A DNA stretch of 64,000 bases from Demequina maris (GTDB lineage: Bacteria; Actinomycetota; Actinomycetes; Actinomycetales; Demequinaceae): the NCBI RefSeq assembly GCF_000971155.1, contig NZ_BBLX01000001.1, positions 289,879 through 353,878 on the forward strand, given 5' to 3'. The first letter of the stretch is position 1; each line of letters opens with the position of its first letter. The position numbers and the translations under genes are program-made. Under the pieces are notes generated by a model. The model searched no databases and was not told the DNA's origin. It worked only from the letters and a program-made list of their open reading frames with translations. Shown here in pieces: positions 12,846 to 17,487 of this stretch.

Positions 12846-13097
12846 GATGCCCCCGTCCCGCGCGCGGTCCTCGATGACGACGTCGCTGGTAGCGGGAGCA
12901 TATCGCCCCGGGAGCCCGCTCGCGCGGGCGGCCGCACCGGCGTGCCGTCTGGACCGCGATCGAGTCCGGCTCCGCCGGCGCGACGATGGCGCCGGCCTCG
13001 AGATCTGGATCGGGACGGTTCACCACGGGCACCTCCTGCGTCGCCGCCGGGTCGGACACGCCCGGCCAAGGACGAAAGCCCCGTCGGCGCGCATCTT

Positions 13098-13161: not shown

Positions 13162-13167
13162 GAGGAG
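13162..13167 (+). promoter_or_regulatory. Ribosome binding site pointing to an ATT start
   Basis: GAGGAG sits seven bases before an in-frame ATT at 13175. No ATG, GTG or TTG lies in frame between the promoter and the first conserved receiver-domain residues. Confidence 0.55.
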
Positions 13168-13174
13168 CGCCGCC

Positions 13175-15403
13175 ATTCCTGACACCGGCCTGATCCTCAT
13201 CATCGGAGACGACCCCGCCTGCGCCGCGGAGCTGCAGGAGGTCGTCGAGGCCGGCGGCTACGCGGTCACCACCGCGGCCGGCAGCGCCTTCGCGATCGAC
13301 GCCGTCATGCGCGTCTCCCCCGACCTCGTCATGGTCGATCCGAGCATCTCGGGCGTCCACCCGTCCACGTTCATCCGTGACCTCAAGGCGAACCCCCGCA
13401 CGCAGGACACCCCCGTCATCCTCATCGCCAACGCGGACGACCCGACCTCGCGCGCGCTCGGACTCGAGGCGGGCGACGACCTGATCAGCCGACCCTTCGA
13501 CCCCCGCGAGGTGCTCGCGCGGGTGGAGCGCCAGGTCACCGTGTCGAAGGTGCGCATGGCGCTGCGCGAGTCGGAGGCGAAGTTCAGGTCCGTGATGGAG
13601 TCCGCCATCGACGCGATCATCTCGGCGGACGCCCGCGGACGGATCCGGTCGTGGAACACGGCCGCGGCGGCGCTGTTCGGCTACACCGAGGACGAGGTGA
13701 TCGGACGCCCGCTCGAGCTCATCATCCCGCCGACCTACCGGCAGCAGCACCGTACCGGCGTGGACCGCGTCTCGGGCGGCGGCGAGACCCATGTGATCGG
13801 CAAGACGGTCGAGCTCTCCGGGCTGCGCGCGAACGGCACCGAGTTCCCCGTGGAGCTGTCGCTCGCGACCTGGTTCCTCGACGACTCGCGCTACTACACC
13901 GGCATCATCCGCGACATCAGCGAGCGCAAGCAGGCCGAGGAGAAGTTCCGGTCCGTGACCGAGTCGGCGATCGACGCGATCATCTCGGCGGACCACTCGG
14001 GCGAGATCATCAGCTGGAACAAGGCCGCCACCAGGATCCTCGGCTACACGGAGGACGAGGTGGTCGGGCACCGGCTCGAGATGATCATCCCGCCACGGTT
14101 CCACGAGGCGCATCGCGCGGGCATGGCACGCTTCACCGCGACCGGCGAGGCGCACGTGATCGGCAAGACCGTCGAGCTCGCCGCGATCCACCGGTCCGGC
14201 GAGGAGCTGCCGATCGAGCTGTCGCTGTCGACCTGGACGGTGCGGGACACGCGCTACTACACAGGCATCATCCGCGACATCCGCGAACGCAAGCGCGCCG
14301 AGGACGCGCTGCGTACCAGCGAGGCCGAGCTGCGCGAGCGCACCGAGGAGCTCGGGCGCAAGAACGATGCGCTGGTGGAGACCCTGGCCCGGTTGAACGA
14401 GATGCAGGACCAGCTGGTGATCCAGGAGAAGATGGCCTCGCTGGGCAAGCTCAGCGCCGGGATGGCGCATGAGATCAACAATCCAGCGGCGTCCGCGCAG
14501 CGCGGAGCGGCTCAGCTCCGTGCGGCCTTCACGCGGCTCGACCGGATCCACCGGCGGCTGTGCGCCGTCGGTCTGACCCCGCCCCAGCACGCGGAGATCG
14601 ATCGGCTCGACACCCTCATCGTCGACCGGGCGCTGCGTCCGGCGGAGCTCAACGCCGTCACGCGCAGCGATCGCGAGGAGCAGCTCGAGGAGTGGCTCGA
14701 GGAGCTCGACGGCGAGGTCGCCGGCGACGTGGCCGCATCGCTCGTCAGCCTCGGGTTCACCACCGAGGACCTGGAACGACTCCGCTCCACCTTCGACGAT
14801 GCGGCGATGCCGACGGTGGTCGAGTGGGTCGGCTTCACCTACACGGTCCATTCCCTCTTCTCCGAGATCGCCGTCGGCACGAGCCGGATCGTCGAGCTGG
14901 TGAAGGCGCTGAAGACCTACACCTACATGGACCAGGCACCGGTGCGGGAGACGGACGTTCGCGAGGGGCTCGACAACACCCTGATCATCCTGCACAACAA
15001 GCTCAAGAAGGGCGTGACCGTCGTGCGGGAGTACGAGGAGGCCCTTCCCCGGATCCAGGCGTTCGCGAGCGAGCTCAACCAGGTGTGGACCAACATCGTC
15101 GACAACGCCGTCGACGCCATGAACGGCGAGGGACGGATCGTCGTGCGGGCGTTCCACCGCGACCCGTGGGTGGTGGTGCAGATCGAGAACGACGGCCCCG
15201 TGATCCCCCGCGAGGTCAGGTCGCAGATCTTCGACCCGTTCTTCACCACGAAGGGCCCCGGTGAGGGAACCGGCCTCGGTCTCAACATCTCGAGGTCGAT
15301 CGTCGTGCAGAAGCATCACGGCGAGATCGATGTCACCTCGCGGCCAGGCCAGACCTGCTTCGAGGTCAGGCTCCCGGTCGACTACACGCCGCCGGAGCTC
15401 TAG
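13175..15403 (+). CDS. Hybrid receiver/tandem-PAS sensor histidine kinase, apparent ATT start
   Basis: About 742 residues if translation starts at ATT 13175. Domains: an N-terminal receiver (DLVMVDPSISG, phospho-acceptor Asp about 55; the usual Lys is Arg in LISRPFDP); two near-duplicate PAS domains (about 134-255 and 256-378), both containing ESAIDAIISAD, GYTEDEV and RYYTGIIRDI; a short coiled coil; HisKA with MAHEINNP; then an ATPase domain with N-box NIVDNAVDAM, IFDPFFTTK and GEGTGLGLNIS. There are no membrane segments, so it is cytosolic. It is followed ten bases later by the response regulator/flavoprotein fusion, its likely partner. The ATT start is inferred from the promoter and ribosome site and is unusual. 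Alternatives are the ATG at 12986, upstream of the promoter, or the CTG at 13190. Confidence 0.85.
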   Translation: MPDTGLILIIGDDPACAAELQEVVEAGGYAVTTAAGSAFAIDAVMRVSPDLVMVDPSISGVHPSTFIRDLKANPRTQDTPVILIANADDPTSRALGLEAGDDLISRPFDPREVLARVERQVTVSKVRMALRESEAKFRSVMESAIDAIISADARGRIRSWNTAAAALFGYTEDEVIGRPLELIIPPTYRQQHRTGVDRVSGGGETHVIGKTVELSGLRANGTEFPVELSLATWFLDDSRYYTGIIRDISERKQAEEKFRSVTESAIDAIISADHSGEIISWNKAATRILGYTEDEVVGHRLEMIIPPRFHEAHRAGMARFTATGEAHVIGKTVELAAIHRSGEELPIELSLSTWTVRDTRYYTGIIRDIRERKRAEDALRTSEAELRERTEELGRKNDALVETLARLNEMQDQLVIQEKMASLGKLSAGMAHEINNPAASAQRGAAQLRAAFTRLDRIHRRLCAVGLTPPQHAEIDRLDTLIVDRALRPAELNAVTRSDREEQLEEWLEELDGEVAGDVAASLVSLGFTTEDLERLRSTFDDAAMPTVVEWVGFTYTVHSLFSEIAVGTSRIVELVKALKTYTYMDQAPVRETDVREGLDNTLIILHNKLKKGVTVVREYEEALPRIQAFASELNQVWTNIVDNAVDAMNGEGRIVVRAFHRDPWVVVQIENDGPVIPREVRSQIFDPFFTTKGPGEGTGLGLNISRSIVVQKHHGEIDVTSRPGQTCFEVRLPVDYTPPEL

Positions 15404-15412
15404 GGGTTCACC

Positions 15413-17074
15413 ATGGCCAAGCCGATCATCCTCGCCGTCGACGACGAGCCGCACGTCCTGAACGCCGTCGCGCGCGACCTCCAGGAGCGCTACCGCGGCG
15501 ACTACCGCATCGTGAAGGCGCTGTCCGGGCAGGAGGCCCTCGAGGCGGTCCAGGAGTTCAAGCGGCGCGGCAACGCGGTCGCCCTGTTCGTGGTGGACCA
15601 GCGGATGCCGGGGATGAGCGGCGTGGAGCTGCTGACCGAGGCCATCACGTTCTATCCCGACGCGAAGCGGGTGCTGCTGACGGCGTACGCCGACACCAAC
15701 GCAGCGATTGCCAGCATCAACGAGGTCGCCCTCGACTACTACCTGATGAAGCCGTGGGATCCTCCCGAGGAGCAGCTCTACCCCGTCCTCGACGACCTGC
15801 TGGACGGCTGGGCCGCGGACGTCCCGGTGCCCTACGACGGCATCAGGGTGGCGGGCACGCTGTGGTCGCCTCGCTCGCACGCGGTGAAGGAGTTCCTCGC
15901 GCGCGGACAGATCCCGTACCAGTGGCTCGACATCGAGAAGGACGACGAGGCGCGCGCCCTCGTCGAGGCGTCCACCGGGGACCGGAGCGTGGTCCCCGTG
16001 CTCTTCTTCCCCGACGGGACCCTGCTCGAGGACCCCGACCTGCACGTGCTGGCCGACAAGGTGGGGCTGCGGACGCCGGCGCTCAAGCCGTTCTACGACC
16101 TCATCGTCATCGGCGCCGGCCCCGCGGGCCTCGCGGCCGCGGTGTACGGAGCCTCCGAGGGACTGCGCACGGTGGTGGTCGAACGGGAGGTCCCGGGGGG
16201 CCAGGCGGGGACGAGCGCGCGCATCGAGAACTATCTGGGATTCCCCCAGGGCATCGGTGGGGCGGACCTCGCGAGGCGCGCCGCGACCCAGGCGAGGCGG
16301 CTCGGCGCGGAGCTGCTGGTCGCGCAGGAGGTCACGGGGGTGCGCCTGGAGGGGCCGTACCGCATCGTCACGCTCGACGACGGCAGCGAGCTTCGCTGTC
16401 ATGCGCTGCTGATCGCGACCGGGGTGACCCTCCGGACCCTCGACGTCCCCGGGCTCGAGCCGCTGCTCGGCGCATCGGTCTACTACGGCGCGGCCACATC
16501 GGAGGCGTCGAACTACCGCGACCGGGACGTGCTCGTCGTCGGGGGCGCGAACTCCGCGGGGCAGGGCGCGCTGTTCCTGTCGAGATTCGCGCGCAGCGTC
16601 ACCATCCTGGTGCGCAAGCACTCGCTCCGCCACAGCATGTCCCAGTACCTGATCGACCAGATCGAGCGCACGCCGAACATCGCGGTGAGACCGAGCACGG
16701 AGATCAGCGCCGTCACCGGCGACGCGCGTCTCGAGACCGTGACCCTCGTGGACCGTGGGGCCGGAGAGAGCACGACGATGCCGGCCGACGCGATCTTCAT
16801 CTTCGTGGGCGCGGTCGCGCGGTCGGACCTGGTCGCGGACCTCGTCGAGCTCGACGCCGCGGGCTTCGTCCTGACCGGACAGGACCTGATCGCGGGCGGC
16901 AGGCGCCCGCGCGGCTGGCACCTGCAGCGTGACCCGCTGCTGATGGAGTCGAGCGTCCCGGGCATCTTCGCCGCGGGCGACGTGCGACACGACGTGGTGA
17001 GACGCGTCGCGTCCGCCGTGGGCCAGGGCTCGGTCGCGGTGAGCGCGGTGCACCGGTACCTCGAGACCGTCTAG
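15413..17074 (+). CDS. Response regulator fused to thioredoxin reductase-like flavoprotein
   Basis: 553 residues. Residues 1-130 are a receiver (VDDEP, phospho-acceptor Asp62 in VVDQRMPGMSG, LMKPW Lys113). Residues about 145-220 look like a glutaredoxin/thioredoxin fold, but SPRS stands where the active-site CxxC would be. Residues about 228-553 are a TrxR-type FAD/NAD(P)H oxidoreductase (IGAGPAGLAAA, PGGQAGTSARIENYLGFP, VVGGANSAGQ, GIFAAGDVR). The NADPH domain reads VYYGAATSEA where TrxR has its CATC, and I see only one Cys in the whole chain (ELRCHALL), so it cannot be a standard disulfide reductase. This fusion is a known family whose output is undefined. It lies directly after the kinase and is probably phosphorylated by it. 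Confidence 0.88.
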   Translation: MAKPIILAVDDEPHVLNAVARDLQERYRGDYRIVKALSGQEALEAVQEFKRRGNAVALFVVDQRMPGMSGVELLTEAITFYPDAKRVLLTAYADTNAAIASINEVALDYYLMKPWDPPEEQLYPVLDDLLDGWAADVPVPYDGIRVAGTLWSPRSHAVKEFLARGQIPYQWLDIEKDDEARALVEASTGDRSVVPVLFFPDGTLLEDPDLHVLADKVGLRTPALKPFYDLIVIGAGPAGLAAAVYGASEGLRTVVVEREVPGGQAGTSARIENYLGFPQGIGGADLARRAATQARRLGAELLVAQEVTGVRLEGPYRIVTLDDGSELRCHALLIATGVTLRTLDVPGLEPLLGASVYYGAATSEASNYRDRDVLVVGGANSAGQGALFLSRFARSVTILVRKHSLRHSMSQYLIDQIERTPNIAVRPSTEISAVTGDARLETVTLVDRGAGESTTMPADAIFIFVGAVARSDLVADLVELDAAGFVLTGQDLIAGGRRPRGWHLQRDPLLMESSVPGIFAAGDVRHDVVRRVASAVGQGSVAVSAVHRYLETV

Positions 17075-17127
17075 GAGGGCGCGCTCCCGGCGCGGTCGGC
17101 GGGCCGGGGTCGGCGACGGTGTCGGGG

Positions 17128-17487
17128 CTATCGACGCGCGAGGATGTCCCGCCAGTCCTCCGGCACGCGATCCGCGGGCCCGGGAGCGGGCTGATCCTCC
17201 GGGTGGCTCGTGGGCTCGGCGAGCGGCGGCCCCTCGAGGAAGGCCTCGCCCGGGTAGTCCCAGCACCAGTCCTCCCCGGGCTCGTAGCTCTGGACCACGG
17301 GGTGGCCCGTCGCGGCGGCGTGCCGGCGGGCGTGGGTGCTCAGCGATCCGTCGCAGCACCCGACATGACCGCACCGGGCGCAGCGCCGCAGGTGCCACCA
17401 CCAGCCACCGGTCTGCTCGCACTCGAGGCAACCGGGCCCGCTCGGCGGCACGGTGGTGTCGAAGGCATCAGCTGCTCCGGTCGGCAT
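17128..17487 (-). CDS. ZnF-UBP domain protein
   Basis: 119 residues from the ATG at 17487, with a strong Shine-Dalgarno (GAGGAGGAT). The protein is essentially one zinc finger of the ubiquitin-hydrolase (UBP) type: CLECEQTGGWWWHLRRC, ARCGHVGCCD, THARRHAAATGHPV and GEDWCWDY give the full set of Cys/His ligands. Bacteria lack ubiquitin; these proteins may bind C-terminal peptides or act as metal/redox sensors. Related proteins are often found beside TrxR-like flavoproteins, and here it is convergent with one, ending 53 bases away. Function in the module is inference. Confidence 0.85.
   Translation of the reverse strand: MPTGAADAFDTTVPPSGPGCLECEQTGGWWWHLRRCARCGHVGCCDGSLSTHARRHAAATGHPVVQSYEPGEDWCWDYPGEAFLEGPPLAEPTSHPEDQPAPGPADRVPEDWRDILARR

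What the first reader, a model, noticed from the sequence alone, without database searches (positions are those of the whole stretch)
13175..17487. Kinase, response regulator-flavoprotein fusion and ZnF-UBP protein as a redox signalling module
A receiver domain joined to a thioredoxin-reductase-like flavoprotein is an unusual output: phosphorylation could gate electron transfer. The flavoprotein lacks the CxxC in its NADPH domain and in the thioredoxin-like linker, with one Cys in 553 residues, so it must reduce something other than a classical disulfide relay. The kinase also has its own receiver, in which the usual Lys is Arg. A ZnF-UBP protein ends 53 bases away. The family is known but its reaction and signal are not.
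Basis: partly seen in the sequence, partly recalled or inferred. Interest (0 to 1): 0.6.

Follow-up and report, generated by a model that had tools for sequence, protein, structure and literature searches.

The report
Kinase-controlled flavin enzyme without cysteines
A bacterial sensor kinase sits beside an enzyme that looks like a thioredoxin reductase but has lost the cysteines that do that enzyme's chemistry; the same pair, often with a small zinc protein, recurs in many bacterial groups, yet what it reduces is unknown.

Summary
In detail: a REC-PAS-PAS histidine kinase (HK), a REC + glutaredoxin-like + thioredoxin-reductase-like flavoprotein (RR) with one Cys, and a convergent ZnF-UBP gene. 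The module is real and widespread. In 296 genomes of the class, 107 have both RR and this HK type, 189 neither, none just one; 103 of 109 close RRs have the HK within 5 kb, at least 29 a UBP. The Cys loss is no frame error: of 125 distinct relatives 122 lack both CxxC motifs; the exceptions are two thiol-type glutaredoxin-reductase fusions and the genome's ordinary thioredoxin reductase. Kept are FAD and NAD(P)H motifs, a Glu in all 118 RR rows where thioredoxin reductase has Asp, and a complete phospho-acceptor REC in 113 of 118 rows; five rows of an HK-less paralogue group lack it. In a sister group a cNMP-binding domain replaces REC, beside UBP in three of four loci read. Best reading: a phospho-gated, thiol-free NAD(P)H flavoenzyme as two-component output, with UBP as partner. 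Acceptor and signal are unknown. The REC-thioredoxin reductase architecture is in print (PMC5847659); I found no functional study.

The parts
13175..15403 (+). Histidine kinase: degenerate REC (13193-13525), PAS1 (13577-13918), PAS2 (about 13958-14287), extended DHp, HATPase_c (15071-15379)
   Evidence: Pfam; possible ATT start after AGGAG and alignment with Agromyces L033; conventional alternative ATG at 12986
14468..14470 (+). Phospho-acceptor His of the H-box (AHEINNP), residue 432 of the 742-aa reading
   Evidence: H27 of alignment A3 invariant in its 41 rows
14570..14806 (+). About 80-aa four-helix insert between the two DHp helices
   Evidence: AlphaFold2 model mean pLDDT 90.8, helices 64-82, 89-107, 111-120, 125-132 of the modelled 337 aa
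15413..17074 (+). Response regulator-flavoprotein fusion, 553 aa
15428..15766 (+). REC domain, residues 6-118; D10 D11 D62 T90 K113 all present
15845..16051 (+). Glutaredoxin/mycoredoxin-like domain, residues 145-213; CxxC replaced by S152-P-R-S155 (15866-15877)
16094..17062 (+). Thioredoxin-reductase-like FAD/NAD(P)H domain, residues 228-550
16484..16504 (+). Former CxxC loop, now Y358-G-A-A-T-S-E364; Y358 and E364 in 118 of 118 RR rows (113 distinct genes)
16871..16936 (+). Family-specific insert near residues 487-508 with W502 and R506 (117 of 118 rows each)
17128..17487 (-). ZnF-UBP protein (finger about 17233-17430), convergent with the RR
   Evidence: Pfam; nearest solved structure 2ida

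Best explanation
A two-component system with an enzyme, not a transcription factor, as output. The soluble kinase (degenerate REC plus two FixL-like PAS domains here; a cNMP-binding domain in eight of ten relatives scanned) phosphorylates D62 of the REC domain. REC phosphorylation changes how REC and the cysteine-free glutaredoxin-like domain sit on a thioredoxin-reductase-fold flavoenzyme, and so switches its NAD(P)H-to-FAD electron transfer. Without cysteines, reduced FAD must hand electrons to a non-disulfide acceptor (quinone, iron-sulfur or flavin protein, metal, O2, or a small molecule). The UBP zinc-finger protein is a partner of the flavoenzyme rather than of the phosphorelay. Shown by computation: domain make-up, loss of both CxxC motifs in the clade, kept FAD/NAD(P)H motifs, kept phospho-site, kinase co-occurrence, UBP association. 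Inferred: phosphotransfer, gating, the reaction, and the UBP contact.
For: HK and RR have the same profile: 107 genomes with both, 0 with one, 189 with neither, of 296 (lists). 103 of 109 close RRs have the HK within 5 kb. HK and RR distances agree over 31 loci (Mantel r 0.64, 0 of 5000 permutations as high). REC residues D10 D11 D62 T90 K113 are complete in 113 of 118 RR rows but in 0 of 5 rows of an HK-less paralogue group (HK within 5 kb of 0 of 19 such matches). A cNMP-binding domain replaces REC in a sister group (L116, L117, L118, L133), and 8 of 10 partner kinases scanned carry the same domain, so the flavoenzyme is the regulated end. UBP lies beside the flavoenzyme in 4 of the 6 RRs that lack a nearby HK and near 7 of 22 partial matches. 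All 49 thiol-less rows of the tree form one group apart from the three CxxC rows, 100/100. The Asp after CxxC in the three thiol rows aligns with a Glu in 118 of 118 RR rows. The model's reductase part fits the structure titled FR conformation (5mh4 Z 36.3, 1.7 A) better than the one titled FO conformation of the same protein (5mjk Z 31.8, 7.3 A).
Against: No activity, phosphotransfer or binding data exist here. The protein could be a catalytically weak NAD(P)H/FAD sensor. An AlphaFold2 preference for one conformation was not checked on an ordinary thioredoxin reductase. No UBP was listed within 5 kb of 80 of 109 RRs (the UBP list was cut at 150 matches, so this is an upper bound), nor within 10 kb of the closest relative L033, and in the window it is on the opposite strand. 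Of the basic residues expected (recalled) to bind the NADPH 2'-phosphate, R401 is kept but 406 varies, so the cofactor is uncertain. 11 of 60 named loci with ample flanks show no HK within 3 kb. The Glu-for-Asp correspondence depends on the alignment: the pairwise one places the gap differently. Co-occurrence tests ignore phylogeny.
Confidence: 0.6

Rival explanations
1. The flavoprotein part is a sensor, not an enzyme: it reads NAD(P)H or flavin redox state and adjusts REC phosphorylation (for instance acting back on the kinase), with UBP as the real effector.
For: Both electron-exit motifs are gone; the RR has no other known output domain; UBP is a frequent small neighbour.
Against: cNMP-type relatives have no REC, and no kinase of this type in the stretches read, yet keep the flavoprotein core. 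The Glu of the active loop is in 118 of 118 RR rows and 4 of 4 cNMP rows, which suggests kept chemistry. The REC sites are kept where a kinase is near and lost in the HK-less group.
Confidence: 0.22
2. It is a thioredoxin-reductase-like ferredoxin/flavodoxin-NADP reductase that gained a REC domain.
For: Those enzymes also lack CxxC (recalled) and share the fold (8c16_B Z 29.1, rmsd 3.1).
Against: By sequence it is nearer to true thioredoxin reductases (4.8e-49 for 7jyp against 5.1e-16 for the best listed ferredoxin-NADP reductase, 3ab1). The tree held no such reductase, so it does not decide.
Confidence: 0.12
3. Chance neighbours: an ordinary two-component pair with an unrelated UBP gene.
For: UBP is convergent in the window and not found within 10 kb of the closest relative, L033 Agromyces.
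Against: UBP within 3 kb in 14 of 80 named loci against 3 more out to about 10 kb in nearly twice the sequence; Streptomyces fungicidicus has RR, kinase and UBP as overlapping genes; 101 of 107 RR genomes have a UBP against 71 of 189 others.
Confidence: 0.06

Closest known systems
REC-thioredoxin reductase response regulators noted in PMC5847659 (J Bacteriol 2018; two passages and section 23 read)
   Same: Same domain combination, called 'Mycobacterium-like' there and reported in two Heimdallarchaeota.
   Different: In the parts I read only the architecture is given; no Cys loss, kinase pairing, UBP link or function.
Low-Mr thioredoxin reductase (TRX_reduct TIGR01292)
   Same: Fold, FAD and NAD(P)H domains; 233.9 bits over the full model.
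   Different: Below the family cut-off of 343.45; CxxC absent in all REC and cNMP forms aligned.
AhpF and glutaredoxin-thioredoxin reductase fusions (L120, L121)
   Same: Thioredoxin-fold domain N-terminal to a reductase domain.
   Different: L120 and L121 carry WCSDC and CATC; here both pairs are gone and a REC domain is added.
DDOR and FFTR of cyanobacteria (PMC9025218, passages read)
   Same: Thioredoxin-reductase relatives with altered chemistry.
   Different: They keep CxxC and lack the NADPH motif; this family does the opposite.
FixL oxygen sensor kinase
   Same: Both PAS domains match FixL PAS best in the PDB (3.1e-23 and 4.3e-18), with a His in the column that I recall as the haem ligand.
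   Different: The distal Arg column (recalled) is not Arg; the kinase core has the DHp insert; haem binding untested.
Bacterial ZnF-UBP protein of PDB 2ida
   Same: 2.1e-36 with the A4 profile.
   Different: Deposited as a hypothetical protein; the Arg used by HDAC6 to hold the ubiquitin tail (recalled) is not conserved.

Membership tests
Two-component response regulator | Acidic pair, phospho-Asp, Thr/Ser and Lys of REC | tested here: met
   D10 D11 D62 T90 K113 in P0001; complete in 113 of 118 rows
Two-component response regulator | Accepts phosphate from a cognate kinase | not testable with these tools
   Only co-occurrence: 107 of 107 genomes
Low-Mr thioredoxin reductase | Redox-active CxxC in the NADPH domain | tested here: not met
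   Y-G-A-A-T-S-E; absent in 128 of 131 rows, 122 of 125 distinct genes
Low-Mr thioredoxin reductase | FAD and NAD(P)H Rossmann motifs and fold | tested here: met
   GAGPAG and GGANSA; Pfam; Z 36.3 to 5mh4
AhpF or Grx-reductase thiol relay | Second CxxC in the thioredoxin-fold domain | tested here: not met
   S-P-R-S here; of 129 rows with that stretch only L120 and L121 have it
DDOR/FFTR | CxxC kept, NAD(P)H motif lost | tested here: not met
   Opposite pattern (definition from PMC9025218 passages)
Thioredoxin-reductase-like ferredoxin-NADP reductase | Kinship with the FNR branch | tested here: inconclusive
   8c16_B Z 29.1; weaker sequence match than thioredoxin reductases
Histidine kinase | H-box His, N and G boxes | tested here: met
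   A3 invariant H27, N235, N239, G269 and the G-rich block; HATPase_c 5e-24
FixL-type haem PAS sensor | Proximal His and bound haem | tested here: inconclusive
   His column kept in both PAS domains; haem not testable; other PAS domains may share this His
ZnF-UBP | zf-UBP profile with Cys/His ligands | tested here: met
   PF02148 48.8 bits, cut-off 22.7; Cys/His columns kept in 18 aligned rows
Ubiquitin-tail-binding ZnF-UBP | Arg that binds the C-terminal carboxylate (recalled for HDAC6) | tested here: not met
   The profile alignment with HDAC6 shows no conserved Arg at that place; one alignment, with a gap there

The most novel reading that the evidence does not exclude
A control circuit in which a phospho-gated (or cNMP-gated) cysteine-free NAD(P)H flavoenzyme acts through UBP zinc fingers, and the same finger, fused to cation/proton antiporters of the Na_H_Exchanger type in other bacteria, lets it also set ion transport, much as KefF does for KefC (recalled). 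The UBP finger would be a bacterial receptor for this flavoenzyme, unrelated to ubiquitin. In the window's own genome only the standalone UBP exists (one match), so here the circuit would lack the antiporter arm.
Probability: 0.12. Interest if true: 0.85.

Novelty: new variant of a known kind. Interest (0 to 1): 0.6.

Why it matters
Two-component systems mostly end in transcription. Here is a conserved, cross-phylum kinase and enzyme pair whose output looks like regulated electron transfer by a thioredoxin-reductase fold that gave up its cysteines. In the plasmid records listed, named full-length hits are called only 'FAD-dependent oxidoreductase' (one 'NAD(P)/FAD-dependent oxidoreductase'), and the kinase 'ATP-binding protein'. 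The kinase pairing, the phospho-site, the acid residue and the UBP partner make the reaction and its control directly testable.

Tried and rejected
Frame error hiding a Cys pair: rejected, because relatives with intact frames also lack it. Anti-phage defence: no PADLOC match for any of the three proteins. Other recurrent neighbours: in clustering of 1196 ORFs from 80 loci only the HK (59 loci near) and UBP (9 near) stand out; the next clusters reach 5 loci. Ten neighbour proteins at loci without a nearby HK were scanned and showed nothing shared. Function in print: ten searches listed no experimental study of this fusion or of its UBP link that I could recognise from titles and abstracts; the library lacks most subscription journals. 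A cofactor call from sequence was left open (406 varies). No coordinates of the models were available, so distances to the flavin could not be measured. An antiporter like that of L071 beside the window's module: tblastn found none in the window or L033.

Limits of the counts: the RR list comes from the matches shown, whose list was cut. I split them by identity and coverage into 109 close (49-57%), 19 of 38-43% and 22 partial; the 19 are not counted as RR. For one search I added five genomes whose partial match is an RR (G132, G259, G111, G152, G212: REC and HK seen in L119, L132, L150, L151, L153; L153 has the RR split over two frames). G198 (L152) was also checked and is an RR; G100 7304855 was not read. 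The UBP list is cut at 150. The chance figure of about 0.27 UBP neighbours for 109 RRs uses assumed averages of 1.3 UBP per genome and 6 Mb. The 80 named loci are the best 80 of at least 590. The kinases were chosen with the insert probe. Of the 131 rows, 125 are distinct genes; of the 118 RR rows. The novel-case odds went from 0.15 to 0.12 on checking, because the own genome has a single UBP match and no such antiporter lies in the window.

Full report
What is there. The kinase (13175-15403) reads REC, PAS, PAS and HATPase_c. The RR (15413-17074) begins 9 bases after the kinase stop and reads REC, glutaredoxin-like, reductase-like. The UBP gene is convergent, 53 bases beyond. In its own genome the RR has one further match, an ordinary thioredoxin reductase on another contig (CATC in L002). 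The only Cys of the RR is C329, which is not conserved: 55 Cys, 44 Ala and others in 118 rows.

How common. In 296 genomes of the class, 157 have a match at E<=1e-60. The scan of named bacterial and archaeal contigs gave at least 590 relatives; the best 80 include Actinomycetota, Chloroflexota, Cyanobacteriota, Bacteroidota, Acidobacteriota, Pseudomonadota, Deinococcota and one archaeal MAG. The window copy groups with Agromyces bracchium (71-73% identical) and a Desulfuromonas MAG (support 97/93), inside a mixed clade of 11 rows with Chloroflexota and Actinomycetota (97/90) and apart from the main actinobacterial group, which points to spread between phyla.

The kinase is the partner. A probe from its DHp insert finds a kinase within 3 kb of the RR in 62 of 80 named loci, and in 49 of 60 that have at least 2 kb on both sides. 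In the class sample 103 of 109 close RRs have the kinase within 5 kb, and 111 of 124 kinase matches lie near an RR or relative. By genome, 107 have both, none has one alone, 189 have neither (Fisher p 1.6e-83, phylogeny not corrected). For three of the six RRs without a nearby kinase a kinase match lies 17-23 kb off on the same contig (coordinates). Distances of the two proteins agree over 31 loci, r 0.64 against a permutation maximum of 0.47. The window's kinase core carries an extra set of four helices between the two DHp helices, modelled with high confidence; the 41 aligned cores, which were picked with the insert probe, share it to varying length. Input domains vary: of ten partner kinases scanned, eight carry a cNMP-binding domain, one a REC (L036) and one REC-PAS-PAS (L033). 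The window's version is thus the less common one among those scanned. In its REC the Lys is Arg and the Thr/Ser is Ala; L033 and L032 are also degenerate, and L032 has lost the Asp, so this REC is probably a pseudo-receiver. Both PAS domains match FixL PAS best among solved structures, with His kept in the column I recall as the haem ligand and the distal Arg column (recalled) not kept. That makes oxygen or redox sensing a fair guess and no more.

UBP. Among the named loci, 14 have UBP within 3 kb (425 kb examined) and 3 more out to about 10 kb (786 kb examined). In the class sample at least 29 of 109 RRs have UBP within 5 kb, against about 0.27 expected under rough assumptions. 101 of 107 RR genomes have a UBP against 71 of 189 others. 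In Streptomyces fungicidicus RR, kinase and UBP overlap by a few bases in that order; in Deinococcus aetherius RR and kinase overlap and no UBP is annotated nearby. UBP also sits beside forms with no REC: cNMP-reductase proteins L116, L117 and L133, but not L118 in the stretch read, and a Paraburkholderia oxidoreductase. Four of the six RRs without a nearby kinase have UBP next to them. So UBP follows the flavoenzyme, not the kinase. Bacterial UBP fingers also occur as C-terminal tails of antiporters: of 16 long UBP frames fetched, six were scanned and five are Na_H_Exchanger + UBP; L148 and L149 resemble the TrkA_N type by BLAST; in L071 such an antiporter is divergent from the RR with 67 bases between open frames. 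Against reading too much into this: L071 is the only such adjacency I saw, tblastn finds no such antiporter in the window or L033, and the window's genome has a single UBP match.

The chemistry. 128 of 131 aligned rows (122 of 125 distinct genes) lack both CxxC motifs; the three exceptions are the thiol-type L120 and L121 and the ordinary reductase L002. In the tree all 49 thiol-less rows form one group with 100/100 support apart from those three (midpoint root; L002 is a long branch). In that alignment the two Cys of CATC fall on A360 and S363 (mostly Ala/Ser and Thr/Ser in the family) and the next Asp on E364; Y358 and E364 are in 118 of 118 RR rows; R401 is kept in 117 and position 406 varies. 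The pairwise alignment places a gap differently, so the Asp-Glu match needs a structure. W502 and R506, in a family-specific insert, are kept in 117 of 118, though the four cNMP rows lack W502. The AlphaFold2 model (mean pLDDT 89.6, pTM 0.71) puts the reductase part in the arrangement of 5mh4, titled FR (flavin-reducing) conformation: Z 36.3, rmsd 1.7 over 302. Ranks 11-45 have rmsd 4.8-7.6, among them the two titled FO: 5mjk (Z 31.8, 7.3) and 5w4c (Z 32.2, 5.2). This would place the nicotinamide at the flavin, but no control was run.

Phosphorylation. The five REC residues are complete in 113 of 118 RR rows; three of the other five have gaps there. In five rows of the HK-less paralogue group none has the set, and none of 19 such matches has the kinase within 5 kb. 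Phospho-control is thus kept where the kinase is kept.

Mechanism and status. Best explanation: a phospho-gated, thiol-free NAD(P)H flavoenzyme with UBP as protein partner (0.6). Shown: architecture, conservation, co-occurrence. Inferred: phosphotransfer, gating, acceptor, UBP contact. The REC-thioredoxin reductase combination itself is in print (PMC5847659, two passages and section 23 read). PMC9025218 (passages read) describes DDOR and FFTR, which show the opposite pattern. PMC8945050 was seen only in found passages, one of them on AhpF. Ten library searches listed no functional study.

Noticed in passing
L071 7637-9808 (-); L134, L137, L139, L141, L147; L148, L149: Bacterial UBP zinc fingers as C-terminal tails of cation/proton antiporters (Na_H_Exchanger, some with TrkA_N).
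   Followed up: partly
L122-L126: Paralogue group with a REC-like N-terminus that has lost the phosphorylation residues; no kinase of this type or UBP found nearby.
   Followed up: partly
L116, L117, L118, L133: cNMP-binding domain in place of REC on the same cysteine-free reductase core.
   Followed up: partly
window 13163-13177: Possible ATT start codon of the kinase, 7 bases after AGGAG.
   Followed up: partly
L153: RR coding sequence split over two frames in genome G212, an assembly error or a real frameshift.
   Followed up: no
L157 2871-3743: Universal stress protein gene, opposite strand, next to the three-gene run in Streptomyces fungicidicus.
   Followed up: no
window 13193-13525: Kinase REC domain looks like a pseudo-receiver; degenerate also in L032 and L033.
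   Followed up: partly
L146: A UBP 61% identical to the window's in a long frame that overlaps another reductase-like frame (40% over 212-550).
   Followed up: no
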